DNA of 64,000 nt from Akebia trifoliata (taxonomy: Eukaryota > Streptophyta > Magnoliopsida > Ranunculales > Lardizabalaceae): assembly GCA_017979445.1 (NCBI GenBank), contig JADQWC010000228.1, positions 186,001-250,000 on the forward strand, given 5' to 3'. The notes beneath the pieces were generated by a model. That model had not been told where the DNA came from. It saw nothing but the letters and a program-made list of their open reading frames with translations, and searched no databases. Of the stretch, positions 1,526 to 62,555 are shown piece after piece. A program made the position numbers and the translations under genes. Position 1 is the stretch's first letter. Every line of letters begins with the position of its first letter.

Positions 1526-2335
1526 TTAAATGTAAAATCTCGAGTTTTCAATTCGCATCTCAAGAAAAAATAAATAGTAAAATTTTGATAAAATCTTAAA
1601 AGTGGGACTTAGGGGTAAAATCTTAAGATATTTTCGATCATTTTAATAGAATCTAACCTCACCATTAGATTTAAAATGATCGAAAAACATATTTTAGCTT
1701 GCAAGCACGCTCAAATGCGAGTCCGAATATAGAAATTGCAAAATCCTCGATTATCAAGTTGGACCAAACTAAAATAGTAACTTTTTGTTAGACTAAGAAT
1801 TATTAAGATTTTATTATACCATTGGGTTCGTAATGAAAAATTATTGAACATAGACTATTTATTTGTCATTTTTGGAGATCAGGAAGTCGAATTATAGTCA
1901 AAAATAAAAACGACGTCAATTTTATGGGTCACCTCATGTCAAAAATATAAATTTTTGTTAGAGATAGAATTTGTAAAAATTGACCATATCATTAGATCCA
2001 GAACGAAAAATTAAACGAAATAGAATATTCATTTGTTATTTTTGGAGTCTGGACGGTCAAGTTATCGTCGATCAAAACAATATGTAAAATATCGATTTCA
2101 TCCAAAATTTTATATAAATAAAAAATTGTATTCTTCGTTTTCTCCAACCCGTCCAAAACCAGCCAACCCATTTTTTTTCTTCGATTTTTAATCTCGAATT
2201 CGTCGCAAATCGCTCGCTGTCAACTTCCGACGCAGAAGGGAGAAAGGTCTGTAGCCTCGACATCTACAAAAACCTACCAAAGATCTCTTCATCTCATCTC
2301 CTCTTTCACCTTATATCGTCAAAAATCAGTCGTAT

Positions 2336-2337
2336 AT

Positions 2338-2368
<31 letters not shown>

Positions 2369-2389
2369 TATATATATTATATATATATA

Positions 2390-2423
<34 letters not shown>
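2336..2423. repeat. (TA)n microsatellite, left insertion site of the 7.4-kb element
   Basis: About 88 bp of almost pure TA with scattered AT phase breaks abut the GGGTCGC terminus. A shorter TA run (9865-9877) follows the other terminus. Every related foldback element in the window also sits in TA repeats, so TA tracts look like the preferred target. Confidence 0.8.
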
Positions 2424-2424
<1 letters not shown>

Positions 2425-2567
2425 GGTCGCATTCCTAAGACTCATATTGTGACTCACATCGCGACTCACCATTTCAGCCGTTCGATATTCGTTAAATCTA
2501 CGGTCCAGATCGCGACCCATTTTTAAAACGATGAAGTTTCTATATTTACAGCTACCTCCCCGTAACA
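2424..2567 (+). repeat. Left terminal inverted repeat of the Pack-type element
   Basis: It begins GGGTCGCATTCCTAAG and pairs with 9722-9864. It is itself closed by an inverted motif: GGGTCGC at 2424-2430 is answered by GCGACCC at 2512-2518, so the outer ~95 bp could act as a minimal foldback unit. Confidence 0.85.
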
Positions 2568-3085
2568 CAGATCGAACAGAAAACAAGTTCTTCGACTTCA
2601 TCTTCTTCGCTTTGATCTCTGCGTTCGAAGCCCTCTCTACAACATCCTCTTCGACAAAAACAAATCGACAGATCGCAGAGATCGTCTTCTTCCTCGTTCC
2701 TCTTCTCGACAGATTGCAGAGATCTTCTTCGATTTACGACGAAGACGAAGACAACTCTCTCTCTCTCGTCATTTACAGCGATTTACGACTACGACGAAGA
2801 CGAAGACTTCTTCTTCCTCATTGAGATCGATTAGACTCACCTCCCCATAAAAACAAAAACAGATCTCAACTTCGTTCTTCGTTTCTCTGCAACATCGGTT
2901 TACGACTTTTGAAACCGTCAGTTTACGACGAAGACGAAGACATCTTCTTCCTCATCGATTTGGACATTTTCGATTCTCTGTAGATTTGGGCATTTTCGAT
3001 TCTCTGTAGATTTGCAAAACTTCGTCACACTCTTTCTCTCTCTAATTCGTTCCAAAGAAATCACAAATTCGATCTCTCTCAAAGG
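2568..3085 (+). promoter_or_regulatory. Left subterminal leader-like region
   Basis: This stretch is pyrimidine-rich with repeated GACGAAGACGAAGAC blocks (about 2735, 2788 and 2925), CT runs and a final CTCTCTCAAAG followed by GTAAGA at ~3086, which looks like a 5' UTR with an intron donor. It points inward toward the helicase exons. A 97-residue frame across it (2531-2824) is low-complexity and I do not call it a gene. A promoter role is inferred from composition and position only. Confidence 0.35.
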
Positions 3086-3250
3086 TAAGAAATCAGAAAC
3101 CCTTAATTAGTTTTTTAATTTTTTTTTAATTTCATGTTCAGAATTTTATAAGGGATTGGTTAGCTTGTTACTTTAATCCCCAATTGGTTTGCCCAATTGA
3201 TTTAGGCAGATTTTAATCCCCTCATGCAGACTTCACTGTATTTTTATTAG

Positions 3251-4509
3251 TCTCAGCAGCGGAATGGCTTCTGGTTCTGGTCCAAGGAATTAAAAGGTCC
3301 CTCTTTATATGACTGATATAAACAAGCTCTTGTTTTCTTCAATGCAAATGCAGCAGCAAGTTAATTTTGTTTCGCCTTTTAATGTTTGTTATGCAGATTT
3401 GGAGAAGAAATGAGTCCTGTAAAATTGACCACCCGAGTATTTGGTATACATCAATCATTTTCGTGTTTCCCTTTTAGATTATGGTTTCATTTAAAGTGGA
3501 GTTCCTCCATTTGTCCTCATAAAATTAGAAAAGGAACTTTCTTACTAAGATATAAATTGTAGCATCAAGACTTCATTTTATTTAATTCTTTGTTTCATGA
3601 GGATTCAAGCAATATCTAGTGAATAGATAATATCTTAAGTCTCAATCCTATTGTTTCATTTGTTCTCACAATTTCCTTCTCTGCAGGCTATGCTCCAGCA
3701 AAAAATGACTTCTTATTTGAAAGGGTAATTGCTTAAACCTGTCGATATCTTTGGTAATTGTAGTTGAAAATTAGAATTCTGGAAATGTCCTCTTATACCT
3801 TTGTCACTTTCGTCTGACTATTTTAATATCTTGTTTTATTATCCAGCACCTCCAAAACTATGTTTTTGGTAAGCAGGGTTTAAGAGACAGTTATGTTGAT
3901 TTTCTTTTTTTGCATCTTCTCATCTTTTTCACTTCCATTGAATTATGTGCAAAAACTTGGTTGCAGATATTCTTATGCAACACTCAAGAGGAAAATCTGC
4001 CTTGGTTTTCTGTTCCACCAGAAAAGGAGCACAAGAAGCAGCACTACAGCTCTCTCGGACAGCAATGACCTTTGGCCATTTGAATCCATTCATAAAATGC
4101 AAGGAACAACAAGAAAGGCTAAAGGAAGTTTCACTGTCATTCAGCGATAAACAAATGCAATCATGTGTTCTTTTAGCTGGTACATACTAAATGATTATTG
4201 AGTTTCCTTCCTCCTATCATCCATGCCTCTTGTTTTCCTTGTTTGATTAGGGGTGTCTCTTAACCCTTTAGTTGATACTGATAACTCTTGCCCTAGGAAA
4301 TGAGTATTGTTGTACTTTATTTCAAGTTATGTCTTCAATGATAAGCTTGTGTTATTTGCAGTTGGTTATCACAATGGTGGGCTTTGTATGAAGGATCAAA
4401 ACCTCATTGAAGGTCTTTTCCTTAGGGGAGATGTTCAAATTCTATGCACTACTAATACTCTTGCACATGGAATCAACTTACCAACACATACAGTAGTAAT
4501 CAAATCAAC
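3251..4509 (+). pseudogene. MER3: Captured fragment of a MER3/HFM1-type meiotic DNA helicase
   Basis: Six exon pieces can be joined in frame at good GT-AG sites: ~3251-3296, 3397-3443, 3687-3724, 3847-3868, 3967-4179 and 4362-~4509. The joined reading covers the helicase C-terminal RecA region: a QGIKRFGEEM-like join, the motif-IV block ALVFCSTRKG, then VGYHNGG and TTNTLAHGINLP. This strongly resembles plant MER3 (ROCK-N-ROLLERS), the crossover-promoting helicase of meiosis. The piece stops after INLP..VIKSTQ, before the QxxGRAGR motif. The N-terminal ATPase half (Walker A, DEIH-type box) and the Sec63 domain are absent, so it cannot be an active helicase. All splice sites are genomic, so it was copied from DNA, not from mRNA. 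The reading is surprisingly clean, which suggests recent capture. Confidence 0.85.
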
Positions 4510-4601
4510 ACAGTACTAGTATGTTGAACTTCTTTTTTCTTTTCAGGGTTTATTCTTCTAAGGAATGAGTGCTTTAGCATCAACCTGTTTTGTCCATTTA
4601 G

Positions 4602-4730
4602 GTTGTGTGATGCTCGAAAGAAAGGAGTACAAGGATGCCCAACATTGGTTGATGTTCCATGGGAAGGTGCAGGGGAACTATTGGTTGAGCTCCTTCGGAA
4701 ACACGCTCAGCAATGGAGTCAGGCAGACTG
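4602..4730 (+). pseudogene. Unrecognised exon-like fragment
   Basis: After a TTTAG acceptor there is an open stretch of ~43 codons reading CDARKKGVQGCPTLVDVPWE and continuing to a KHAQQWSQ-like end. It is not part of MER3, where motif VI would be expected, so it probably derives from another gene. I do not recognise the source family. Spacing from the helicase piece is ~90 bp. Confidence 0.4.
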
Positions 4731-5516
4731 TTGGTTGCAACTTTACAAATCTAATTCATGCATATATACATGTATGAGTTGTATTATTTTCTTTGTTTTC
4801 TAATATCATGAACAAAAGGCAACAAAGGTTACTAAAGGCAACTCATTGGTCTTTTCAGATAGCAAACTTATTTTCTACCAATGAAGGGTATCATCATATA
4901 CATTTCAGTTTGGAATAACTGAGAAAGAACACAATATATAGATATTGATTGCATGAACCTCTCGTCTTGACCCATGTTCCAAAAATGTTTAAGGTTAAGG
5001 TCTAATTTAATTCCTTCCACCCCAAAATAGTCCCTAACGCGATATCAAACAGTTTTCACGTTGACAAATTTGTCACCTTTTACACTTGTCAAATACTTTT
5101 TGATCAGTTCTTGATCATTAGATAGTGCATATATTTATAAATGGAGGGAGAGGGCCAAGAGTGTGTGAGCAACACCAAGAACAAAAAATATACTTACAGT
5201 TCTTCCATTCCACAAATGGAGGTACCACAAATATTCACCAAAATGTGGTCCAAACACGCTGTGAAAAGGGAAGGGTTCTGCTCCTCCCAAACTGAGGAGG
5301 ACTGACTAAAGTTTGACTGGATTTTGTAACAAAATCAGTTTCACTCGGTCGATATACAGTTAGGCAAAGTATCGACTTTATGATTTTTTTTTTTAAAGGC
5401 AAAAAAAATCAGTCTATTGTGAAGGATAAGTTGTAAATTGTGTTCTTTAATTAAACTTTTGTTGTGTATTAAAAGCCGAAATACAATACAAGCTAATAAG
5501 GGGCAGAAAAAATGAC

Positions 5517-5713
5517 TAGAAGCTAACTCCCCCATATGACACATAATCCAGGTCTCTAATTCCTAGGTCTGGATAAAAACACAGGCAACCACCACCCATG
5601 TTCAAAGGTTGGGCTATGATAGGTTTGTTATACATATCCATCACAAGGTTTTGTATGTTATTGAAAGGGTCCAAACCTGATGCCACACATTGCTTCACTT
5701 TCTCAACAAACAA
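5517..5713 (-). pseudogene. Unrecognised gene fragment
   Basis: A minus-strand frame of 65 codons reads FVEKVKQCVASGLDPFNNIQ and continues through PLNMGGG to CFYPDLGIRDLDYVSYGGVS before a stop. The composition looks like a real protein C-terminus, but I do not recognise the family. The upstream (higher-coordinate) part is repeated in a perfect 140-bp tandem copy (5727-5866), which is out of frame because 140 is not a multiple of three. It sits among captured fragments in the Pack-type element. Confidence 0.4.
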
Positions 5714-5866
5714 ACCTATCCCATAGAACCACCACCCATGTTCAAAGGTTGGGCTATGATAGGTTTGTTATACATATCCATCACAAGGTTTTGTATGTTA
5801 TTGAAAGGGTCCAAACCTGATGCCACACATTGCTTCACTTTCTCAACAAACAAACCTATCCCATAG
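5587..5866. repeat. Perfect tandem duplication, 140-bp unit x2
   Basis: 5587-5726 and 5727-5866 appear identical by eye, starting AACCACCACCCATG and ending CTATCCCATAG. The absence of differences means either a very recent duplication or an assembly artefact. Confidence 0.9.
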
Positions 5867-6229
5867 GACATGGCAAATTATTTGGTTTGGTTTGATCCAG
5901 ACTTCAAACACGCGTAACAACAAACAAGCATTTTGAGAAATCAAGTTAGAGTCACCCATATAGATAATACACTCCACAAGGTGGAGTTAAGTATGTATAG
6001 ACCAACTCCATCATGAGCCTTAAAAACAAGCATTTCATAAGTTTCAGACAATTGGCTTAATAAGTATCCAATTTGTTGTTAGGAGACATTACAAAAACAA
6101 ATAGATATAATCTCAATAGATGGACACTTTACAACCATCACAAAAATAGAGATTTTTCCAACAGATCGATACCCATTTAAAAGAGACCCTCCTAAAACTT
6201 ATCCACACACACGCCATCTTTTAGGACCT

Positions 6230-6461
6230 CATAAGCCTCTCTAGATATCAGCTAGCTTTTCTTTCTCCAGATACCCAGTCACAGTGGTAAAGAAACGCAA
6301 GACAGATGAATCCTTGTACCCGACTTCACATACAGAAGGTATGAATACAGTTAGCTTCTTTGTCTCTTTATTGAACTCGTAGTTGGTGGCATCTCGAGGA
6401 AAGATGCTTACTACCATGTCATATTCCTTTCATAACTCCGGCAGTGGCTTTTGCAATTTCC
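6230..6461 (-). pseudogene. Captured DUF538-family fragment
   Basis: On the minus strand, after a TTTTTACAG acceptor at 6462, the reading runs LPEL-stop-KEYD..SIFPRDATNYEFNKET, then KKLTVFIPSVCEVGYKDSS, and FFTTVTGYLEKES. This matches the plant DUF538 pattern of a ..YE.......L.V.....CEV..KDS.V......V.G.L core; those are small proteins of unclear role. A TGA interrupts the early part and the C-terminal VKTKVLVW-like end is frameshifted or lost. It is a fragment inside the Pack-type element, not a working gene. Confidence 0.6.
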
Positions 6462-6920
6462 CTGTAAAAACCAAATCTCCATTTCATTAAAAAGTTGAAG
6501 AATCCTATTCAGAGAAGAAGAAGAAAAAAAGTTACATGTCAATGCCATCCTACTCGGAAACATGACTCACATTCTCAATTCAATTCCATTAAACTACCAA
6601 AACAGCATAAATAAAACTATTCAAGTAAAAGAACACCTAATCTCCATACCATCTCACAACTGTGTCATAAAGGCTAAAGTGCATTGAACTTGGTATTATA
6701 TTGGCATGCCTTTAGTGTATTGTGGTTCAATTCGTGCAGCTATAGCTTCTTATAACTTACAAGGAATTAATTTTAGTAAATGAACTACAAAGAAAAGGTC
6801 ACCTTTGAATTTATTAACCAGCCATCTGGTTCCTCCTTCTATGGTGTTTGACAATGACTAAAATTATCTAAAACAAATCAGATGCCATTCTCAGAAGAAG
6901 GGGTGGTTTGCTAGGTTTAC

Positions 6921-8385
6921 CATCTGTAAGGAACAGTTGACGACCAGTTCGGCCAACAAAAATTGGAGCTAAAGGTGCAACAAGTTTTTCCAAGATGGGG
7001 ACCCCCAAGAGAAACGGAAGCTGAAACATAACATATTATATTAGAGCAGTCAGTTGTTTGGCAATTTAGGAGAATCACAGTAATAAAATACACCATCAGA
7101 TCATGGTTTATGGTGCATTGATGACTAATCTTTCATAAATTCTTCATTAAGACCTACATATTTGCATTGAAATTCAAAAGGTAAATGTCTGATAAGGATT
7201 CATGGTGATGATTTATAATTCACTAACCCAACTATTTTGGGTCGGGACATGAATCCTGTTTCCCCATTCAATCCTATCCAGAACTAATAACTCATGTTAA
7301 GGCGTGTGTCTTCAAATGTTTTCTTTCCAACTCAATGCAAATCATTTCAGCGTTCTTCCCATCCTTTTGTAGCACACAACATGCACCAAAGATTGCCTCC
7401 AATGGTTCTGTCATTGCATACCTAAACCTTCTCAATCAACTTTCCTGTTTTGTCCCCTACTGGTCCTACTCCTAGATCCCTTGGATGTGCTCTTTTCTTA
7501 TTTTTCCCTTCTAGTCTTTCCACTTGGCCATTTCAATGTTTTCCTAAAATCTTACTGTTGGTTAAATGCAGGACTTAACAACTTTGAAAAAGAATAGATT
7601 CTGAAAGAGAATCAAGTGTTACACATGTAACATGAAATTAATTAACAAGAAAATAAATTGAATAGAAGATATGCAAGAACCAACTTATCAGAAAAATTAT
7701 GCTGCATGCAGTGAGTTTTTTAAATACTCATACCCTTGTTTTCTTCCATAAGAAATAATATTTCCAAATTGAACAGCTAAAAATATATCATAATGGTAAG
7801 ATAACTCAGAGAAATCAAATGCAGCAATGGAGACAAAGTCGACGGAATACAGGATTCTATGATGGCAATAGAACCGACAATTATGTGTGTCAGGAATGCA
7901 CCTGCTTTCTCCCTCTCACTCCGAGATGTGGAGTTGCCAAGGTAATAAAATTGGTTGGCTCCAATCCAGCAATTGTACCCCATTTTGAAGAGCATGAAGA
8001 ATTTTTATTTCTAGAACCAGGGATGTCATCGTGCTGATTGCCAATCAAGGCATTTGGAGAATAAAGAACAGCAATTGCATATCTTGCAAACAAACCACCA
8101 AGGGAATGGGCCAAGAAAGAGATTCTTTTCAAGCTCTCTGTCTTTCGTACAACTTGCTTCACCTGTTTCGAACAAATGTAATCATTTTTTATTTAAAAAA
8201 CGAAAGAAAAGAATTACCCATTTCAACAGATCAAGTCATCATCTTTTTTCTTTTTGAAAGAACCTACATCAAATACTTAGAGAACTTGGAAACAACACAT
8301 TTATCAAGACTCACTTCATCTGCTAATCGTCTCCCAGCTCCATCAATGCCACTGAAGGTTTTAGTGTAGGTATTAGAAGAACTTG
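6921..8385 (-). pseudogene. Captured fragment of a DUF676 putative serine esterase/lipase
   Basis: Three minus-strand exons have good splice sites: 8385-8315, 8162-7902 and 7020-6921. They read TYTKTFSGIDGAGRRLADE, then VVRKTESLKRISFLAHSLGG and on to FITLATPHLGVRG, then LPFLLGVP..APIFVGRTGR. AHSLGG is the GxSxG-like nucleophile elbow of the alpha/beta-hydrolase lipase fold typical of plant DUF676 (ROG1-like) proteins. The start of the protein and the C-terminal portion with the remaining catalytic residues are missing. The exon-intron structure is retained, so capture was from genomic DNA. Confidence 0.8.
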
Positions 8386-8946
8386 CTGTACAAAGTGACA
8401 AAGTCTTAAAAATTATAATGAAGAAAATTTCTTGGCAGTGTATCATTAGAAATAGGTAACTTCTCAATGGATTGCAACCAACTTGACATATCACATCACC
8501 GAAATTTATACATTTGAAAGACAATTTTTAAGACCGTGGAGGAATAGCTTAATCCCAAATAAAAAATGAAAACTTAAAAGTTGATTTAAAAATGTATAAA
8601 AAAGCATTGCCAACATTCCATATGGCCATACCGTAGATTAAAAATTTGCTTCCTAGTCTCCTTTTCAATTCTGCTTCTGCATATGTCCAGTCACTAGGGC
8701 TGTAGTACTTAAAGAATTAGTGTATTGAACAACATTGATTTGGAAGCAGAAGTAACAGAAAACAGAAACATAATTAGGTATTTCTAATTCTCATGCAGGA
8801 GATTGGTCTTAGTGTGAGATGCATCCATCCATATGCTTTAAGTATAAACTAAACACCATACATGACTAATAACTAACCAAAAAAATAAAAAAACTGCATT
8901 TTGTTATTTTATTTTTTGGCAAGGTACAACATTAGAAGAACATAAT

Positions 8947-9190
8947 CTACCAAGTTGAAAAGAGAGCCCAAAGAGCAATTTGAGCAACCTTGATCATGCT
9001 TAGAAGTTGTTTCTGCATTATCCAATTATGAAAGTTGGCCAAATTGTCCAGCTTCTTCTGTGATGAAGGTGGAGCCTTGGGACCATTTGTCATCCCAGGT
9101 GCAGAACCAACCTTCGGAGCTATGAATGGGAGATTTTCTTTTCCTCTATTAGAAACATATGTCACACCACTCGGAGCTGCACTGCTTACA
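8947..9190 (-). pseudogene. Unrecognised captured exon, minus strand
   Basis: An open minus-strand stretch of ~75 codons includes VTYVSNRGKENLPFIAPKVG and continues to QKKLDNLANFHNWIMQKQLL, ending in a stop at 8947. The sequence looks like real protein but I do not know the family. It lies between the leader-like right subterminal region and the lipase exons, so any transcript from the right end would read this first. Confidence 0.4.
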
Positions 9191-9239
9191 CTGTCAACAA
9201 GAAAGTGAAAAAATTGAAAGCCCTAAGTCACCACCCAAC

Positions 9240-9721
9240 AACACACTAAAAATCGAAGAAGAAGAAGACGAAGATGGAGATGGAGATACTCAGCAAAAAA
9301 ATTAAAAAGAAAAATATTAAAAACAAATAAAAGTGCAAAAAAAATTAAAAAACAAGGGTTTGTGATTTGTTACCTTAGGGTTTCTGTCGAGCTCTTCGTT
9401 TGTGTGAGTCGTCGTCTGTTCTAGAGAGAGAGAGAGAGAGAGGGAATAGAGATGAGGAAGAAGCGATGTAAAGAGAAAGAGAAGAGAGGGCAGAAACGAA
9501 GAAGACGAGTTTTCGTTCGTTTTGATTTTCTTTCGTCTTCGTTTCTTTCGATTTTGTTTAGCAAGCAAGTCGGTCGATCTGAAATTTCGTTCAATCGCGA
9601 TGAACACAAGAAGATTTCTCTCAGATTTTGGCTGAAATTTCGTTTGAAATTTGCGAAGAAGACGAAGTTTCGGCTGAGGCTGAAATTTCGTTTTTAGTTT
9701 TTATTTTTTATTTTTTATTTT
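9240..9721 (-). promoter_or_regulatory. Right subterminal leader-like region
   Basis: On the minus strand this reads as CTTCTTCC-rich sequence, a CT run (complement of 9424-9441) and AGAAACCCTAAG followed by GTAACA (about 9375), which resembles a plant 5' UTR and intron donor pointing into the element. It mirrors the left subterminal region in style but not in sequence. The overlapping low-complexity frames are not called as genes. Confidence 0.35.
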
Positions 9722-9864
9722 GTTATCGGGGAGTAGTTGTAAATAATGAAATTTCATCATTTTAAAAATGGGTCGCGATCAGGACCGTAGATTTAACGAA
9801 TATCGAACGGCTGAAATGGTGAGTCGCGATGTGAGTCGCAATATGAGTCTTAGGAACGCGACCC
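9722..9864 (-). repeat. Right terminal inverted repeat of the Pack-type element
   Basis: Reverse complement of 2424-2567, beginning GGGTCGCGTTCCTAAG. Within the first ~117 positions I count five mismatches to the left copy, so the two ends are about 96 per cent identical by eye. Confidence 0.85.
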
Positions 9865-10731
9865 TATATATATATATGGGGATTTTGAAACTTCGACCTC
9901 AGATTTCATTAGTTTCGAGGCCAAATCGCCATTCGCCGTAGAAGGGAGAAAAGACAACGGCATCGAGATATTCGAAACCACCGGGTCAGATTCAAAAATC
10001 AATCGCTTCAAAATTTGATCCATCTCGATTTTCATGTCGTTTGCCTCGATTTCTGCATACGTGCTTCGATTATTTCCTAGATAAATAATAAGGAACTCTC
10101 AATTTCTATTAGTAATCGTAGATTGTGAAAATTGCATTTAGGATTTTATTAAAAATTTGTGGTGAGTTTCCAAAAATATAGAATTTAATCGATTATTTCA
10201 AATTCACGCCAGAACTTGCATATTTGATATGTTTAATTGTATTTTTTAACAAATTATACGTGGGTGGGATATTTCAATGGGTTATTCTGTCAGTTGGGTC
10301 ATGTGCACCATTCGGACTCCGTTTTGATCTAAGTATTGTACTTTTTCAATATTATTGATGAAAATAAATTTTATAATTGAAAAATATGATTTAATATTCA
10401 ATGAACTCATATTGAATTGATGAATATTTTATTTGAGAAATTGAAAATTATAAAAATCGAAAAAAGGGTATGAAACGGTAAAATGTCAGAGTCACACTCG
10501 AGGGGTGATGACTGCATTTTACGTTGTTGTGTTGTGTGTAGGTTGGTGAACGGATATCCAGGGATAATATTACTGGTTACATGTTTATTTACTTTCTGTT
10601 AGCGTGATGCGCTATTTACGTTTCTGTTCCGTTATTTATTTTAGGCCGGCTAGCCACAGTTGCATGGTAGAAAACTGAATATCCATTCTCAACTTTGTAC
10701 TGTTAATTTCTTTTTTTTGCTTTCAAAGGAA

Positions 10732-17900: not shown

Positions 17901-17923
<23 letters not shown>

Positions 17924-18302
17924 GAACAGCGTTCCTAAGACTCATATTGGGACTCACATTGCGACACACCGTTTTGTCTTATATGGGCAAAAATATTTGG
18001 AATGGGCTGATTTTTTGTGAGGATGATCTCTATGGTGAGGAGATCATCTTTGCCAAAATCAGCTCATTATGAAACTTCTAGACCGTCCAATTTTGTTGAA
18101 AAATTATAGACCGTCCTATTTTTGTAAATCAATTTTGATGGGGTTAGAAGTTTTGGAATGGGATGATTTTTTGCTAGGATGATCCCCTCATCACAGAGAT
18201 CATCCTCATAAAAAATCAGCTCATTCCAAACATTTTTGCCCATATAAGACAAAACGGTGTGTCGCAATGTGAGTCTCAATATGAGTCTTAGGAACGTGAC
18301 CC
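17924..18302. mobile_element. Foldback MITE in a TA repeat, arm type A
   Basis: About 379 bp that folds back over most of its length. The outer arms carry GTTCCTAAGACTCATATT-type sequence (the same end as the 7.44-kb element). The inner core carries GGAATGGGCTGATTTTTTG and GAGGATGATCTC..GAGATCAT hairpin blocks and a pair of GACCGTCC motifs. It is flanked by TA runs on both sides. The left terminal GGG is degenerate (GAACAGC) while the right end reads GACCC. The 94-codon frame across it is an artefact of the repeat. Confidence 0.8.
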
Positions 18303-25292: not shown

Positions 25293-27361
<2,069 letters not shown>

Positions 27362-37582: not shown

Positions 37583-37957
37583 GGTGCCTAGCAATTTAGC
37601 TAGGGAACACATGCCATAGCCAAAGATTTTTGTCCTACATGGATTAGAAGTTTCCGAATGACCTGATTTTGGTGAGGATGATCTTTATGGTGAGGAGATC
37701 ATCCTCACCAAAAATCAACCCATTCTGAAACTTCTAACCCCATCAAAACAAGTTGAAGAATCATGGACCATTCATTTTTTTGTAAACCACTTTTGATGGG
37801 GTTAGAAGTTTCAGAATGGGCTAATTTTTGGTAAGGATGATCTCCTCTCCCTGGAGACCATCCTCACCAAAAATCAGCTCATTCCAAAACTTCTAACCCA
37901 TATAGGTAGGACAAAAAACTTTGGCTATGGTGTGGGTGCCCTAGCTAAATTGCCACC
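37583..37957. mobile_element. Foldback MITE sharing the GGAATGGGCTGATTTT core, arm type F
   Basis: The outer arms are GGTGCCTAGCAATTTAGC / (reversed) GGTGGCAATTTAGCTAGGG followed by CCATAGCCAAAG. The inner core is the same as in the 49-52 kb cluster: GGTTAGAAGTTTCAGAATGG, GAGGATGATC hairpins and a TTTGATGGGGTTAGAAGTT block. Unlike the others it is not set in a TA tract. Confidence 0.75.
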
Positions 37958-49284: not shown

Positions 49285-49304
49285 AAGTAATAATATATAT
49301 ATAT

Positions 49305-49684
49305 GGGTCCCGTTCGGCACCCTAAGTTTTACCACACACTTTAACAAACGCGTTTTGTCCTACATGGGTTAGAAGTTTTGGAATGGGCTGATTTTTGGTG
49401 AGGATGATCTCTATGGTGAGGAGATCATCCTCACCAAAAATCAGCTCATTCCAAAACTTCTGACCCCATCAAAAATGATTTACAAAAAATGGACGGTCCA
49501 CGATTTTTCAACTTGTAAACATGGGGCTAAACATTTCGGAATGGGCTGATTTTTGGGGAGGATGATCTTCTATCATAGAGATCATCCTCACCAAAAATCA
49601 GCCCATTCCAAAACTTCTAACCCATGTAGGACAAAAAACGTTTGTTAAAGTGTGTGGTAAAACTTAGGGTGCTGAACATTTCCC
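49305..49684. mobile_element. Foldback MITE 1 of the 49-52 kb cluster
   Basis: The left tip is GGGTCCCGTTCGGCACCC; the right tip reversed is GGGAAATGTTCAGCACCC. The arms continue with TAAGTTTTACCACACACTTT. The core has TGGAATGGGCTGATTTTTGG, GGATGATCTCTATGGTGAGG and the inverse, and TTTACAAAAAATGGACGGTCC. It sits between TA runs. The two tips differ at their first ~11 bases. Confidence 0.85.
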
Positions 49685-49708
49685 TATATATATATAATAT
49701 ATATATAT

Positions 49709-50089
49709 GGGTCCCGTTCGCCACCCTTAGTTTTACCACACACTTTAACAAACGCGTTTTGTCCTACATGGGTTATAAGTTTTGGAATGGGCTGATTTTT
49801 GGTGAGGATGATCTCTATGGTGAGGAGATCATCCTCACCAAAAATCAGCTCATTCCAAAACTTCTGACCCCATCAAAAATGATTTACAAAAAATTGACGG
49901 TCCACGATTTTTCAACGTGTAAACATGGGGCTAAACATTTCGGAATGGGCTGATTTTTGGGGAGGATGATCTTCTAATCATAGAGATCATCCTCACCAAA
50001 AATCAGCCCATTCCAAAACTTCTAACCCATGTAGGACAAAAAACGTTTGTTAAAGTGTGTGGTAAAACTTAGGGTGCTGAACATTTCCC
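49709..50089. mobile_element. Foldback MITE 2, near-identical to MITE 1
   Basis: Almost the same as 49305-49684 base for base, including the flanking TA run and the unlike tips. This indicates tandem duplication of element plus TA spacer (unit ~404 bp) rather than an independent insertion. Confidence 0.85.
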
Positions 50090-50112
50090 TATATATATAT
50101 ATATATATATAT

Positions 50113-50718
50113 GGGTCCCGTTCGCCACCCTTAGTTTTACCACACACTTTAACAAACGCGTTTTGTCTTACATGGGTTAGAAGTTTCGGAATGAGCTGAT
50201 TTTTGGTGAGGATGATCTCTATGGTGAGGAGATCATCCTCACCAAAAATCAGCTCATTCCAAAACTTCTAACCCCATCAAAATTAATTTACAAAAAATTG
50301 ACGGTCCACGATTTTTCAACGTGTAAACATGGGGCTAAACGTTTGTTCAGCACCCTAAGTTTTACCACACACTTTAACAAACGTTTTTTGTCCTACATGG
50401 GTTAGAAGTTTTGGAATGGGCTGATTTTTGGTGAGGATGATCTCTATGATTAGAAGATCATCCTCCCCAAAAATCAGCCCATTCCGAAATGTTTAGCCCC
50501 ATGTTTACACGTTGAAAAATCGTGGACCGTCCATTTTTTGTAAATCAATTTTGATGGGGTCAGAAGTTTTGGAATGAGCTGATTTTTGGTGAGGATGATC
50601 TCCTCACCATAGAGATCATCCTCACCAAAAATCAGCCCATTCCGAAACTTCTAACCCATGTAAGACAAAACGCGTTTGTTAAAGTGTGTGGTAAAACTAA
50701 GGGTGGCGAACGGGACCC
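50113..50718. mobile_element. Foldback element 3, ~606-bp near-perfect palindrome
   Basis: Both tips are GGGTCCCGTTCGCCACCC. The left ~230 bp equals the reverse of the right ~230 bp, with a further inverted MITE-like segment (50340-50500) at the centre that begins GTTTGTTCAGCACCC, the inner arm of MITE type 1. It looks like two elements fused head to head. No coding. Confidence 0.8.
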
Positions 50719-50736
50719 ATATATATATATATATAT

Positions 50737-51115
50737 GGGAAATGTTCAGCAACAAACATTTTGACAAACATTTTGGCAAAACATTTTTGAAAATATGGGT
50801 TACATGTTTTGGAATGGGCTGATTTTTGGTGAGGATGATCTCTACAGGGAATAGATCATCATCACCAAAAATCAGCCCATTCCAAAACTTCTAACCCATC
50901 AAAAATGGTTTACAAAAAATGGACGGTCCACGATTTTTCGACCTGTTAACATGGGGCTAGAAGTTTTGGAATGGGCTGATTTTTTATGAGGATGATCTCC
51001 TCACCGTAGAGATCATCCTCACCAAAAATCAGCCCATTCCAAAACCTCTAACCCATGTTTTGAAAAATGTTTTGCCAAAATGTTTGTCAAAATGTTTTGT
51101 TGCTGAAAGGGACCC
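50737..51115. mobile_element. Foldback MITE 4, arm type C
   Basis: Left tip GGGAAATGTTCAGCAAC, right tip reversed GGGTCCCTTTCAGCAAC; arms AACATTTTGACAAACATTTT. The core is as in the other members. TA runs on both sides. Confidence 0.85.
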
Positions 51116-51133
51116 TATATATATATATATAGA

Positions 51134-51512
51134 GGGTCAGGTTCAAAGGACAACCATTTCTACACACATATAGACAACGTGTTTTATCTTATATGGGCAA
51201 AAATGTTTGGAATGGACTGATTTTTTGTGAGGATGATCTCTGTGATGAGGAGATCATCCTTGCCAAAAATCAGCTCATTATGAAACTTCTAGACCGTCCA
51301 ATTTTTGTTGAAAAATTATAGACCGTCCAATTTTTGTAAATCAATTTTGATGGGATTACAAGTTTTGGAATGGGATGATTTTTTGCCAGGATGATCCCCT
51401 CATCACAGAGATCATCCTCACAAAAAATCAGTCCATTCCTAATATTTTTGCTCATATAAGACAAAACACATTGTCTATATGTGTGTAGAAATGGTTGTCC
51501 TTTGAACCTGAT
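51134..51512. mobile_element. Foldback MITE 5, arm type D
   Basis: Left tip GGGTCAGGTTCAAAGGAC, arms CAACCATTTCTACACACATA and GACAACGTGTTTTATC. The right tip reversed, ATCAGGTTCAAAGGAC, has lost the GGG. The core carries GACCGTCCAATTTTTG twice, like the copy at 17924. Confidence 0.8.
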
Positions 51513-51525
51513 ATATATATATATA

Positions 51526-51864
51526 GGGTAGCGTTCAATGGCCAACAGTTTGGCAAACACATTTTTCAAAACATGGGTTAGAAGTCTTGGAATGGGCTGA
51601 TTTTTTTTGGGGATGATCTCTATGGTGAGGAGATCATCCTCACCAAAAATCAGCCCATTCCAAAACTTCTAACCCCATCAAAAATGGTTTACAAAAAATG
51701 GACGGTTCACGATTTTTCAACTTGTAAACTGGGGCTAGAAGTTTTGGAATGAGTTGATTTTTGGTGAGGATGAGATCATCCTCACCAAAAATCAGCCCAT
51801 TCCAAGACCTCTAACCCATGTTTTGAAAAAGTGTTTGCCAAAATGTTGGCCATTGAACGGGACC
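51526..51864. mobile_element. Foldback MITE 6, arm type E
   Basis: Left tip GGGTAGCGTTCAATGGCC, right tip reversed GGTCCCGTTCAATGGCC; arms AACAGTTTGGCAAACAC. The same GGAATGGGCTGATTTT core, with one hairpin shortened near 51770. Confidence 0.8.
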
Positions 51865-51872
51865 GTGTATAT

Positions 51873-51903
<31 letters not shown>

Positions 51904-52283
51904 GGGTCACGTTCCTAAGACTCATATTGAGACTCACATTGCGACACATCGTTTTGTCTTATATGGGCAAAAATATTTGGAATGAGCTGATTTTTTGTGA
52001 GGATGATCTCTGTGATGAGGGGATCATCCTGGCAAAAAATCATCCCATTCCAAAACTTGTAACCCCATCAAAATTGATTTATAAAAATTGGACGGTCTAT
52101 AATTTTTCAACAAAATTGGACGGTCTAGAAGTTTCATAATGAGCTGATTTTTGGCAAGGATGATCTCCTCATCACAAAGATCATCCTCACAAAAAATCAG
52201 TCCATTCCAAACATTTTTGCCCATATAAGACAAAACACGTTGTCTATATGTGTGTTGAAATGGTTGTCCTTTGAACCTGACCC
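51904..52283. mobile_element. Foldback MITE 7, chimeric arms (A left, D right)
   Basis: The left arm is type A (GGGTCACGTTCCTAAGAC, then TCATATTGAGACTCACATTG), as in the elements at 17924 and 2424. The right arm reversed is type D (GGGTCAGGTTCAAAGGAC, then AACCATTTCAACACACATAT), as in MITE 5. The core is shared. TA runs on both sides. Confidence 0.85.
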
Positions 52284-52299
52284 ATATATATATATATAT

Positions 52300-54319
52300 A
52301 TATATAAATTGATTCGTTGAAGCAAAACTTAATATACTAAATCTGTTGGTATCCATCAAAACTGACCACTCTTAAATATTTGACCCTTAAATATTGGCAT
52401 GTGTCTATTCTGTAGGCATTCTTCCTCTGCACATTTTTTTCCAACACGCACCTCATTCACGCCTTTAATCAACACATGCCCTCACGCGTGTGTAACCAAA
52501 ACTGCCATTAATGGCCGCCTTGTGTCTTTCCTATTCAAACTCAATTCACATATTCAAATTCAATTCACACCTCAAACTCTTCTCAGACTTTTCGTTTGTT
52601 TTCTTCTAAAAACGTGTATATTACTGTCCCCTACACGACTATGACCTATTGTTACACGCACCCCGCTACACACACATGATTCACCTTTATCCTCTATTTC
52701 TTTCATTCTTATTCTCCATTGCGAAACCACACCGAAGCCCAAGATTTGTGAAATTGATTTCGTTGATCTTCTTCCGTCACCGAACAAAGACCTGATCTGA
52801 TGGACAATTTGTAGTTTGTCCCTTGACAAACTCGAATACTAAATCCATGAAAACCCTAGATCAGATCATAAATAAATTGGATCGAAAACCTTAAATCCAT
52901 GAAGGCCAATATTCATGATAGCTCCCTATTTCTCATTGAGACCCCGACCATACTGTGTGATTTTTCGTGGTTCCTTATTAGTTATCACGGATGACGTCAA
53001 ATTGTAGATGCAAAAAACTTGCACTACCTTGAGATTTGTGATGATAACTCGTGATCTCCTCTCCTCATGTCTTTGTGTGCTTAAAATAACACTTCTTCGA
53101 CGTCCAAATTAAAACTTAGTATAAAAATAGTGTAAAATTTAAAGGGGGGAGAGCTTATACCTTTTAGATTCTTTTTGGAAAAGCTGTACGTAAGATTGAT
53201 GATGTTGAATTAAGTTGTTGAAATTGAAAGAAAGTTGTTGTTGATGCTGCTGAAGCAACTTGCTGAATTAAGTATATTGTTTGGTAATATACTGTCTAAT
53301 TGTGATATTAAGATGTTGAACTATGTGGTAATTAACTATTTAAAAATTGTTGGATGAAATTAAAAATAATGTTAAGAAAAAGATTATTTATCTGATATAA
53401 GTACTAATATGTTAACAATAAGTATAAATATAAAATTTAATATTAAAAAATTAAAATTCAATTTTATTTTTTTTGTATTAGCATACTTAATGTCAATCAA
53501 ATAAACAATAAGTAATTAAATAACATTGTACATCATGTATGTATGGCATTATAAATTTGTTGAGCAATCTCATCTCGTACAATATTCATATTAATAATCA
53601 ATTCATTATCAATTTCATTTGGTATCGTATTAGATGCACATCTTCTATCAATGTTAACATTTTCACCCCTTCACATATGTATAACCTTTTAAGTCTTCTA
53701 ATATTTTCTTTACTATTTTTTTTAGAAGGTAATCGTGAAGTTGGATTTTAAGAGAGTCGAATCTAATATGTCAAAACACTTTCCACACATCTTACCAACT
53801 TGCTAAGTTGGCATCTTCATAATTTCTTTACCTTACTTGAAATTGACAACAACTTTTACTGTAGTACAACAAAAAAATAAAGAAAGAAGGGTGATAAAAC
53901 TTGGACTTAGAACTAGGTGTGATGTGAAAGATATTTGAAAATTACATTGTTTCTTCGACATGGAGATTACTTGCAGAAGTGTTTAACAACGAGTCGTCCA
54001 AATACAACTTATGCAATTAATCAAGTTTTTCAATTCATTCATTAACCTACGCATTCTTCGCCATCTCAAGGGTACCTTGGATATTGGTGTAAACTTGAAA
54101 CATAGTTTAGACACGTCTCCATGCTTGCATTAAGCATGTTGAAATTGATTGTCATTTTATTTAGACATGTTGCACGTGGATCTTGAAAGATATCATTTGT
54201 ACCAAGTGTTAAACCATGACAGATCTAAATCTATCCATAGTCTGATGTGTATATTTTTATACTTAATCGGATCTAGATTGAACTAGGATCCTATTATGAC
54301 TGCATTGATCCATTTTGTA
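52300..54319. other. Intergenic region
   Basis: No gene recognised. A few frames of 65-85 codons (52399-52644, 52572-52829, 53539-53751) have no domain and overlap each other or AT-rich sequence. Confidence 0.4.
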
Positions 54320-58900: not shown

Positions 58901-60382
58901 TGGATTTAGACGAGATTTCAACGATTGGGAAGTGGATTCGCTGGCTAGTTTCTTCTTGGCAATAGATTTGGTAGTGATCTCTTTCCTTGAGGAGGATTCT
59001 CACATTTGGGACCTAGGTAAAAATGGGATATTTTCTGTCAAATCGTTCTACAATTGGTTGATTGGTTCACATGCTCAGTCTTTCTCCTTGGTGGAGGTGT
59101 GGAGCCCTAAGGACCTTTCTAAAGTTACCTTCTTCATTTGGGTAGCTTCATTGGGGAAAATAGTGACCTTGGATAATGTTATGACAAGAGGGATCATTTC
59201 GGTTAATTTTTGCGGCTTATGTAAGGAGGATGGCGAGTGGATCATATCCTTCTTCATTGCAAGTTGGCCTAAATGATTTGGGTCTTATTTCTTGGGGCTC
59301 TTTGGCTGGCTTGGTGTGCTCCAAGGATGTTTCGAGAGTTTGTAGATGGATAACTAGCTATCGGTGTGGGATTCTCTGACTTTTAAAAGGAGATTTTGGT
59401 TTATTACTCCATTTGCGATTTGTTAGGAGATTTGGAAGGAGACGAAAGTTTATGGAATCATCTTCTCGATCCGCCTTTAGAGTAAGGTCCTTAAGGAATC
59501 TAAGGGGGTCTACTTTGAAGATTTTGTAACAAAGTGGAATTGGGTATGTAGTTTAGAAGAGTAACTCTGGTTTTGGTGCCTTCTTTTTTTTGCTTTTGTA
59601 ACTATTTATGTGGTCATCTCGACCGTACTTTTTAATAACGATCTTTCTCTTATAAAAAAATTAAAATTCTAAATTACATTTTCTATGTGTTATACATAAA
59701 CTAGGGTTTGCTCTTGCTGTAGGCACGAGTATCCTCTTTGGGGTTAAGGGGGTAAAAGAGGAAACACATTAAAGTTGGAGGTTCATTATTGGAAAAGGGG
59801 GGAAGGAGAGAAAAGACAATAAAGTTGGAGGGGTGTTTTGGAAAGGGGAAGTAAAGGAAATAAAATAAAGTTGGAAGGGTATTCTTGGAGAGGAAGAGAA
59901 GAGGAATAACAAAAAAGTCAAAAATTGTCCTCGAGATTCATAGGTAGACTAAATCCCAACCCTTGTTTATGTGGGGGATAAAGGGAGTGGGGTCCATCGT
60001 TATGTTTTATTATATAGATTTAAACATAAAGTATAAAATATATTTGATGAAAATGGACATGTGCCGATGATGTTTCTGTTTGGTCTTTGTGGAATGGAAA
60101 TATTTTTTTGTATATTTTGTAGAAACATGTTGTATTTAATACCGTGATGGAAAGTGAAGAGATAGACGGCAAATTTGAAGTAATTTAACAGTTCGTGTGG
60201 TTTAGTAACACACATCTACTAGTAGGTCCTTTGGTGGAATATTTGTCAAACTAATATGTTCTATCTCCATGTTATCAGTGGATCAAAGTAGAAGATGGGG
60301 CTACTTTTGAAACTCCTTCAACAACTATGTTTTTGCAGCATGTAGAGTTTGAGCAAGTTGAGGGGCAACAGGGGATACAAAG
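55970..60382 (+). CDS. First two exons of an organelle-targeted protein gene (partial, product unknown)
   Basis: Exon 1, 55970-56269 (100 codons), ends at TTG/GTGAG. Exon 2, 60279-60382, begins after TTATCAG and ends AG/GTAATG. Both junctions are in phase 0, so the join reads ...TIQGL-WIKVEDGATFETP..TTMFLQHVEFEQVEGQQG. Exon 1 has a long Ser/Phe/Arg-rich, acid-poor N-terminus (ANMLRVLQFLVSSPGF, then PFQKRWKPFSNNG), as in plastid or mitochondrial transit peptides, with a likely mature start near MSAIRSESRSDDL. I do not recognise the mature protein, and later exons are not found in the window. The 4.0-kb intron holds a hAT MITE, a LINE and a Helitron-like element. The link between exons is inferred from phase and order. 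Confidence 0.5.
56969..57146. mobile_element. Short hAT MITE, copy 2 (178 bp), perfect 8-bp target duplication
   Basis: Tips CAAGGGCAGATTTACA and (reversed) CAGGGGCAGAGCCAGG. Flanked by the exact duplication CAACCACA (56961-56968 and 57147-57154). Internal AAGAATTTTCA and GAGCTATTGTGAC blocks are shared with copy 1. It lies in the intron of the 55.97-kb gene. Confidence 0.9.
57273..57600. repeat. Diverged direct repeat, ~160-bp unit x2
   Basis: Copies at ~57280-57418 and ~57436-57598 share CAAATAAAACMTCTYTG, AGACCATRCA, GCAARCTTACCTTACTCCAAAA, CTCACAAAGAGGAAAATA and GATTCTATAA blocks. Confidence 0.75.
58435..58454. repeat. (CA)n microsatellite
   Basis: About ten CA units immediately 5' of the LINE fragment. 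Confidence 0.9.
58483..59665 (+). mobile_element. LINE (L1-type) ORF2 C-terminal fragment
   Basis: Two plus-strand reading frames (58524-58895 and 58932-59276) read MNQALIGKWLWRSGTKRNIL..RVRFWEDRWCG and FSVKSFYNWLIG..FFIWVASLGKIVTLDNVMTR..CGLCKEDGEWI, the post-reverse-transcriptase region plus zf-RVT of plant LINEs. The 3' end has CTCGACCGTACTTTTTAATA followed by TCTTATAAAAAAATTAAAA. Frameshifts and stops make it inactive; 5' truncated. It lies in the intron of the 55.97-kb gene. Confidence 0.85.
59701..60018 (-). mobile_element. Helitron-like non-autonomous element, copy 1 (318 bp)
   Basis: On the minus strand it starts TCTATATAATAAAACATAAC after a host A and ends CAAACCCTAG before a host T, the Helitron A-TC...CTRR-T rule. 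A decayed hairpin (CTCGTGC..GCAAGAG) precedes the CTAG. No target duplication, as expected. The body consists of AAAGTTGGAGGGGTATTATTGG-like units. Confidence 0.7.
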
Positions 60383-62240: not shown

Positions 62241-62555
62241 GGCATGATCATTCTCTTTGGGGTTAAGGAGTTAAAAGAGGAAAGACAATAAAGTTGTAGG
62301 GGTATTATTGGAAAAATGGGTAGAAGGGTAAAGGCAAAAAAGTTGGAGGGGTATTATTGGAAAAGGGAGAGATAAGGAATGAAAATAAAGTTGGAGGGGT
62401 ATTATTGGAAAGGCAATAAAGTTGAAGGGATATTCTTGGAAAGGGAGGAGAATAAAGTTGAAATTGTTCCTTGAGATTTGTGGGAGATTAAATCCAAACC
62501 CCTACTTATGTGGGAGATAAACATTGGGAAGAGACTGTTGTGTTGTATTAAATAT

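What the first reader, a model, noticed from the sequence alone, without database searches (positions are those of the whole stretch)
49305..52283. Foldback elements with a constant core but interchangeable outer arms
Seven elements here, plus 17924-18302 and 37583-37957, share the same inner hairpins (GGAATGGGCTGATTTT, GGATGATCTC..GAGATCATCC, GGACGGTCC). Their outer 40-60 bp fall into at least six unrelated sequence types. Within most elements the two outer arms still match each other. The tips keep only GGG, four variable bases, then GTTC, in TA tracts. A MITE normally diverges from the inside and conserves the ends; here the pattern is reversed. I know of no described family with this organisation; one explanation is arm replacement by templated repair during foldback replication (inference).
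Basis: partly seen in the sequence, partly recalled or inferred. Interest (0 to 1): 0.9.

Follow-up and report, generated by a model that had tools for sequence, protein, structure and literature searches.

The report
Hairpin transposons with exchanged ends
In this plant genome an estimated 24,000 copies of a small hairpin-shaped mobile element keep nearly the same middle while their two ends differ between subfamilies, and one of these end types also caps much larger transposons, one of which carries transposase gene sequence with a stop codon in it; the ends are therefore likely what decides which enzyme can move the element, and they have likely been exchanged one side at a time.

Summary
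The constant-core, variable-arm pattern is real: in register, cores are 73-98% identical between elements, arms of different types 27-62%. The core motif gives 70,829 hits in the 652-Mb plant genome, roughly 24,000 copies. The array is a known kind: SaTar/MuTAnT-type TA-microsatellite-targeted Mutator-like elements (MULEs). Three points go further. (1) The arms are not unrelated: most are runs of degenerate 12-bp units. (2) On one nearly identical core, left and right arms assort: E/E, E/C, C/C, E16/C, E16/E16; E8 looks recombinant within its core. (3) The E arm's outer ~50 bp also ends 7.4-13.6-kb elements with other interiors. One has 9-bp target duplications, 902-bp inverted repeats and FAR1/MULE/SWIM transposase domains, with an in-frame stop. 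Ends thus behave as modules, likely transposase-recognition modules. Against free interchange: arm type mostly follows core clade, and only E ends were tied to a transposase. Galileo (Drosophila) already shows one centre with TIRs of three subfamilies. New variant of a known kind.

The parts
49305..49684 (+). E1, core element, arms A/A, tips GGGTCCC and GGGAAAT
49709..50089 (+). E2, core element, arms A/A
50113..50340 (+). E3, left part of an A element, fused to E4 (right half, TA tract and E4's tip missing)
50341..50718 (-). E4, inverted core element, arms A/A, outer tip of its left end missing
50737..51115 (+). E5, core element, arms B/B; tips GGGAAAT (left) and GGGTCCC (right), reversed relative to type A
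51133..51510 (-). E6, core element, arms C/C
51526..51866 (+). E7, core element, arms D/D (one 12-bp unit shorter) with an internal deletion
51904..52283 (+). E8, mosaic element, left arm E and right arm C, looks recombinant within the core
17924..18302 (-). E9, solitary core element in a TA tract, arms E/E
37584..37957 (-). E10, diverged core element, arms F/F, not in a TA tract, no target duplication seen by eye
2424..9864 (+). BIG: 7.4-kb element in TA tracts, 144-bp inverted repeats (92%) that begin with E-type arms, no hairpin core found; interior carries a DUF676 gene fragment
2333..2423 (.). TA tract at the left end of BIG
9865..9876 (.). TA tract at the right end of BIG
49290..52306 (.). 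TA-linked array E1-E8

Best explanation
These are copies of a roughly 380-bp TA-microsatellite-associated foldback element with a conserved core and mostly 12-bp-periodic outer arms that differ between subfamilies; the arms are likely transposase-recognition ends of Mutator-like elements (MULEs), likely exchanged one side at a time by recombination within the shared core. Shown: the core/arm contrast, the 12-bp units, whole-unit length steps, assortment of left and right arms in one clade, and one arm type (E) also ending 7.4-13.6-kb elements with other interiors, two of which have 9-bp target duplications. One of those two encodes FAR1 and MULE transposase domains, with an in-frame stop between them. 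Inferred: a FAR1/Jittery-type MULE transposase moves E-armed core copies; the other arm types answer to other, related transposases; a core lineage that gains new ends can be amplified again, so each subfamily has its own arms but nearly the same core. Insertion into TA tracts next to other copies then builds the array.
For: Core 73-98% between elements against arms 27-62% between types. In the E/C clade (9 copies, 72 arm comparisons) same-type arms differ by 9.6% at 4.8% core divergence (27 comparisons), different-type arms by 33.8% at 6.4% (45), a jump and not a clock. All four combinations of left arm (E or not E) and right arm (C or not C) occur. E8: the first 23 of 65 informative columns are E9-like (columns 2-5 only reflect E6's missing tip), columns 80-218 are mixed, columns 256-391 are E6-like except column 339. 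Arms: 12-bp self-match z = 13 over 21 cluster representatives; 12 is the best offset in 15 of 21 clusters and in BIG; whole-unit differences between otherwise alike arms. E arms match BIG's ends at 87-91% over 46-52 bp. BIG's TIR has 46 matches, 15 inverted pairs 7.4-18 kb apart among them; some ends abut core copies. L033 and L034 share a ~97.5% identical interior that is not BIG's. 9-bp duplications TTATTTAAA at L034 and TAACTTATT at the C7 element. FAR1, MULE and SWIM domains in the C7 element, which has 902-bp inverted repeats at 98.5%. TA tracts near both ends in 58 of 68 core copies, against 8.1% of random 75-mers.
Against: Arm type mostly follows the core clade: 14 changes for 11 left-arm states (51 rows), 17 for 14 right-arm states (46 rows), 15 for 16 pair states (40 rows), so only 4, 4 and 0 above the minimum; the tree itself is weak (5 of 58 inner branches starred). 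Of 780 pairs of core elements, none with both arms at 85% or more had cores under 80%; the only like-arm, other-interior case is the E type. Of 15 pairs with cores at or above 94% and an arm below 70%, 14 lie in one clade (the other is a B-D pair). No transposase was found for arms A, B, C, D or F (that search did not complete). The 12-bp period is not significant alone in A (p 0.10), C (0.6) or F (0.67 and 0.82), among others, and several clusters that show it are relatives of B. The 9-bp duplication on a core-bearing copy is one of 12 non-TA cases, and cross-pairing gave 2 of 132.
Confidence: 0.66

Rival explanations
1. Fast arm turnover without exchange: the arms are short arrays of 12-bp units that gain, lose and replace units inside each lineage and are then copied to the other arm, while the core is slow.
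For: Arm type follows core clade; unit gains and losses are visible, and 7 of 42 elements have arms of different length, by 10-25 nt; hybrid-looking arm at L013:3019 left; in the five B and five E copies an element's own arms are more alike than arms of other copies.
Against: Left and right arms assort in the E/C clade with a breakpoint inside the core; E arms sit on unrelated interiors; within types A and E the arms diverge only about 1.7 and 2.5 times as much as the core.
Confidence: 0.22
2. Core homogenisation: the ends are the old, diverged lineages, and gene conversion among array neighbours keeps the cores alike.
For: Dense arrays (12 full copies in 9 kb in L012 and in L013) favour conversion; E8 suggests that cores recombine.
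Against: Cores do not group by neighbourhood: E9, about 33 kb away, matches E6 and E8 at 94-95%, while their neighbours E5 and E7 match them at 73-77%.
Confidence: 0.07
3. Escape from silencing: hairpin transcripts give small RNAs from the arms, and the arm sequence changes because of that and not because of transposase choice.
For: The three elements folded form near-perfect 380-nt hairpins (E8 less so at its unlike arms); the general link of hairpins to small RNA is from general knowledge.
Against: The core, equally hairpin-forming, does not change; arm change without loss of the 12-bp architecture fits a binding site better (inference). No small-RNA data here.
Confidence: 0.05

Closest known systems
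SaTar elements (guayule, rice; PMC5907723: abstract, Results in full, Discussion part 1 of 2)
   Same: TA-microsatellite-flanked non-autonomous MULEs in modular, non-nested arrays; fused copies; some members with 10-bp duplications; defective autonomous MULEs with like TIRs, flanked by microsatellites
   Different: Families are described by their own TIRs; no shared core with different ends and no 12-bp unit structure in the parts I read
MuTAnT (Medicago; PMC4486113: abstract, Results and Discussion)
   Same: Foldback MULE, TA-targeted, GGGG tips, 9-nt duplications, Jittery-like transposase in the 4.9-kb relative
   Different: Two subfamilies; no exchange of ends reported in the parts read; sequence relation not tested
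Pineapple Ac-mMITEs (PMC8449440, passages)
   Same: Very abundant TA-associated Mutator-like MITEs in non-nested clusters
   Different: Opposite pattern: two families share the distal TIR segments
Galileo (Drosophila; PMC3573991, passages and the section on chimeric copies; PMC3688188, abstract)
   Same: One central region found with TIRs of three subfamilies (98% centre, 77% TIR ends); chimeric copies with unlike TIRs; several transposase-binding sites in TIR tandem repeats
   Different: P superfamily in flies with 7-bp flanking duplications, long TIRs and far fewer copies (170 studied)
Pack-MULEs and multi-TIR MULEs (PMC3310237, passages; PMC8277862, passages)
   Same: One set of MULE ends with different captured interiors, as BIG and L033/L034 show for E ends
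   Different: There the ends stay and the interior changes; the core elements show mainly the reverse

Membership tests
Mutator-like elements (MULE) | 8-11-bp target site duplication | tested here: met
   9 bp at L034 and the C7 element, both with E ends. For a core-bearing copy only L010:5563 of 12 non-TA cases, weak.
Mutator-like elements (MULE) | MULE transposase in a related autonomous-type element | tested here: met
   C7 element with E ends: PF03101, PF10551, PF04434; one in-frame stop between the two parts. Not tested for A, B, C, D or F ends.
SaTar / microsatellite-targeted MULEs | Flanked by microsatellite | tested here: met
   58 of 68 copies at both ends, 7 at one, 3 at none
SaTar / microsatellite-targeted MULEs | Modular arrays in which no element interrupts another | tested here: inconclusive
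   None seen in the window array; one possible split copy (L014) among 32 partial hits, not verified
SaTar / microsatellite-targeted MULEs | Larger MULEs with like TIRs, some in TA tracts beside small copies | tested here: met
   L033 beside an E-armed core copy; ends in L030 and L031 also beside core copies
MuTAnT | Sequence similarity to Medicago MuTAnT | not tested
   No MuTAnT sequence came from any call
Classical MITE (shared ends, decayed interior) | Ends more conserved than interior | tested here: not met
   Arms 27-62% between types, core 73-98%
Galileo / P superfamily | 7-8-bp duplication and P-type transposase | tested here: not met
   9-bp duplications and a MULE transposase on E-ended elements

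The most novel reading that the evidence does not exclude
A foldback core has been handed from one set of MULE ends to another. Short arrays of 12-bp transposase-binding units serve as an exchangeable address, and changing the address lets one core lineage ride successive FAR1/Jittery-type transposases. This would be modular end-swapping by a MITE, the mirror image of Pack-MULE capture.
Probability: 0.35. Interest if true: 0.75.

Novelty: new variant of a known kind. Interest (0 to 1): 0.55.

Why it matters
How non-autonomous elements survive when their transposase dies is an open question. A family of some 24,000 copies whose ends change as modules on a near-constant core makes it testable in one genome. 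It predicts that each arm type is the end of a separate MULE, and that recognition resides in 12-bp units.

Tried and rejected
Rejected: arms are duplicated flanking DNA (the arms lie between tips that adjoin TA tracts, and the same types recur at unlinked loci). Rejected: six unrelated arm families. Rejected: the array as tandem duplication only (types A-E and both orientations alternate; duplication remains possible for E1/E2). The first alignment left E6, E9 and E10 unflipped and was replaced.

Led nowhere: plasmid search, viral contigs, Rfam, a helicase-like piece in BIG without a clear relative. Paper searches for exchanged TIRs and for subterminal 12-bp repeats or Jittery-type TA-targeted MULEs listed no plant MITE with one core and several ends; that statement covers the papers shown by these searches only.

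Dropped rows: 100 non-overlapping core hits gave 68 full-core copies; 32 partial hits were left out. Of the 68, 26 lacked a located tip on at least one side, so two-arm counts use 42, and 40 where a core score of at least 200 was also asked; the core tree has 62. The sample is 10 stretches chosen on C1 for core hits, 10 blind 10-kb stretches (which gave 3 of the 68 copies) and the window (9), so it is not a random draw. Length steps alone do not separate a period of 12 from 13; the sequence autocorrelation does.

Full report
What is there. The window is part of a 652.5-Mb, 878-contig plant genome; its PPR gene's three best matches are from Ranunculales plants (Ranunculus, Kingdonia, Macleaya, 58-59% identity; the order is recalled). 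At 49304-52284 lie seven near-complete ~380-bp elements and one truncated one, joined by (TA)n tracts except at the E3/E4 fusion, with further copies at 17923-18302 and 37584-37957. The core motif at up to one mismatch occurs 35,599 + 35,230 times genome-wide, against 3 + 2 for the reversed control. At 2.9 such hits per full copy this is about 24,000 copies, a rough estimate.

Core against arms. Arm types are named A-F after the window copies; E16 and C13 are clusters T16 and T13. After turning E4, E6, E9 and E10 round, cores agree at 73-98% between elements. Arms agree at 95-100% within type A and at 96-98% for the arms that E8 shares with E6 and E9, but at 27-62% between types. In 40 sampled copies with both arms found and a core score of at least 200 (780 pairs), the 45 pairs with cores at or above 97% had arms at 94% on average. 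Of the 106 pairs with cores of 94-97%, 15 had at least one arm below 70%: 14 in the E/C clade and one between a B and a D copy. Within the E/C clade, like arms differ by 9.6% at 4.8% core divergence (27 comparisons) and unlike arms by 33.8% at 6.4% (45 comparisons). Arms therefore change in jumps.

What the arms are. From tip to core, 102 arms with a located tip fall at lengths of 32-34, 45-47, 57-60 and 67-69 nt. Over 21 cluster representatives the self-match at offset 12 is 0.49, against 0.28 in shuffles (z = 13), with a further peak at 24 (z = 3). Offset 12 is the best offset in 15 of 21 clusters and in BIG; the test over offsets 11-14 gives p < 0.05 in 14 of 21 and in BIG, but not in A, C or the two F arms, and several of the clusters are relatives of B. 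Some arms differ from otherwise near-identical ones by exactly one unit, for example B with and without TTTTGACAAACA, and D with and without TTTGGCAAACAT. The arm types are thus mostly variants of one architecture. At offsets of up to 4, A-B, B-C, B-E and C-E exceed shuffles, A-C and A-E do not.

How arms move. Inside the E/C clade, nearly identical cores carry E/E, E/C, C/C, C13/C (the second arm read as C by eye; the clustering put both in C13), E16/C and E16/E16 arms, so all four combinations of (left E or not) x (right C or not) exist. E8 is E9-like at the first 23 of 65 informative columns, mixed between columns 80 and 218, E6-like from 256 to 391 except column 339, and E9-like again at 393-394 at the outer edge, as expected from an exchange inside the core. 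Tips tell a similar story: 16 of 42 two-tip copies (18 with one-base variants) are type A with TCCC left and AAAT right, while 4 B copies (5 with a variant) carry the same pair reversed relative to the core. Against free interchange, the core tree needs only 14 changes for 11 left-arm states and 17 for 14 right-arm states, though few of its branches are well supported, and no pair with both arms alike had cores under 80% identical. In 18 type A copies an element's own two arms (0.888) are no more alike than left-left (0.901) or right-right (0.947) arms of different copies, so there is no sign of continuing arm-to-arm copying; in five E copies (0.938 against 0.919 and 0.856) and five B copies (0.908 against 0.758 and 0.793) own arms are more alike.

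The same ends on other interiors. The element at 2424-9864 lies between TA tracts, has 144-bp inverted repeats (92%) whose outer ~50 bp match E arms at 87-91%, and carries a DUF676 fragment; no full core copy lies in it. Its TIR finds 46 places, among them 15 inverted pairs 7.4-18 kb apart (40 of 600 candidates scored). L033 (C3) and L034 (C8) share about 97.5% of their interior, but with BIG only the ends, about 640 bp of its right end and 145 bp of its left. L034 carries a borderline SURF2 match (25.4 bits, cut-off 25) and is flanked by the 9-bp duplication TTATTTAAA, whereas L033 sits in TA tracts next to an E-armed core copy. The ends in L030 (a fragment) and L031 also adjoin core copies. 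A 13.6-kb relative on C7 has 902-bp inverted repeats (98.5%), the duplication TAACTTATT, and two adjacent open pieces of 219 and 563 aa, split by one in-frame stop, with FAR1 (1.2e-14), MULE (8.4e-33) and SWIM (1.9e-6) domains. It also holds a partial core match at 6109-6208. E ends are therefore MULE ends. That the other types are too is inference, supported by shared tips, TA association and unit architecture, and by one core-bearing copy (L010:5563) with a 9-bp duplication (one of 12 non-TA cases, cross-pair control 2 of 132).

Mechanism. Likely: a FAR1/Jittery-type MULE transposase recognises the 12-bp units (PMC3310237 passages cite a ~32-bp transposase-binding motif in maize Mutator TIRs; PMC3688188, abstract, reports several binding sites in Galileo TIR repeats; that Jittery is FAR1-related is recalled). 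It moves any DNA between such ends, preferably into TA tracts. Recombination between copies through the shared core brings a new arm to one side; a second event or copying makes both sides alike; the new subfamily amplifies. The enzyme for A, B, C, D and F ends, the binding, and the direction of the exchanges are not shown.

Known kinds. The array belongs with SaTar elements (PMC5907723) and MuTAnT (PMC4486113, with a Jittery-like transposase and GGGG tips). One centre with the TIRs of three subfamilies is described for Galileo (PMC3573991, section on chimeric copies). What I did not find among the papers listed by my searches is a plant MULE family with a constant foldback core, assorting ends and a 12-bp unit structure.

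Noticed in passing
2424-9864: A 7.4-kb Pack-MULE-like element carrying a DUF676 esterase fragment, part of a family of large elements with long inverted repeats and differing interiors.
   Followed up: partly
5587-5866: Perfect tandem duplication of 140 bp inside that element, so probably recent.
   Followed up: no
L035 6109-6208: A partial foldback-core match lies inside the transposase-bearing element on C7.
   Followed up: no
L013:1760-2045 and L016:378-640: Two diverged core elements with a further arm type (CATATGAGAAAACATATG), one arm longer than the other by 10-11 nt.
   Followed up: no
L011:6863-7125: Diverged core element whose longer arms resemble E10's type F by eye; not in a TA tract.
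   Followed up: no
25402-27149: Open reading frames on the minus strand that look like actin by eye (no family search).
   Followed up: no
59770-59918 and 62278-62444: Two sets of 46-48-bp (and 31-bp) tandem repeats with similar units around AATAAAGTTGGAAGGGTATT.
   Followed up: no
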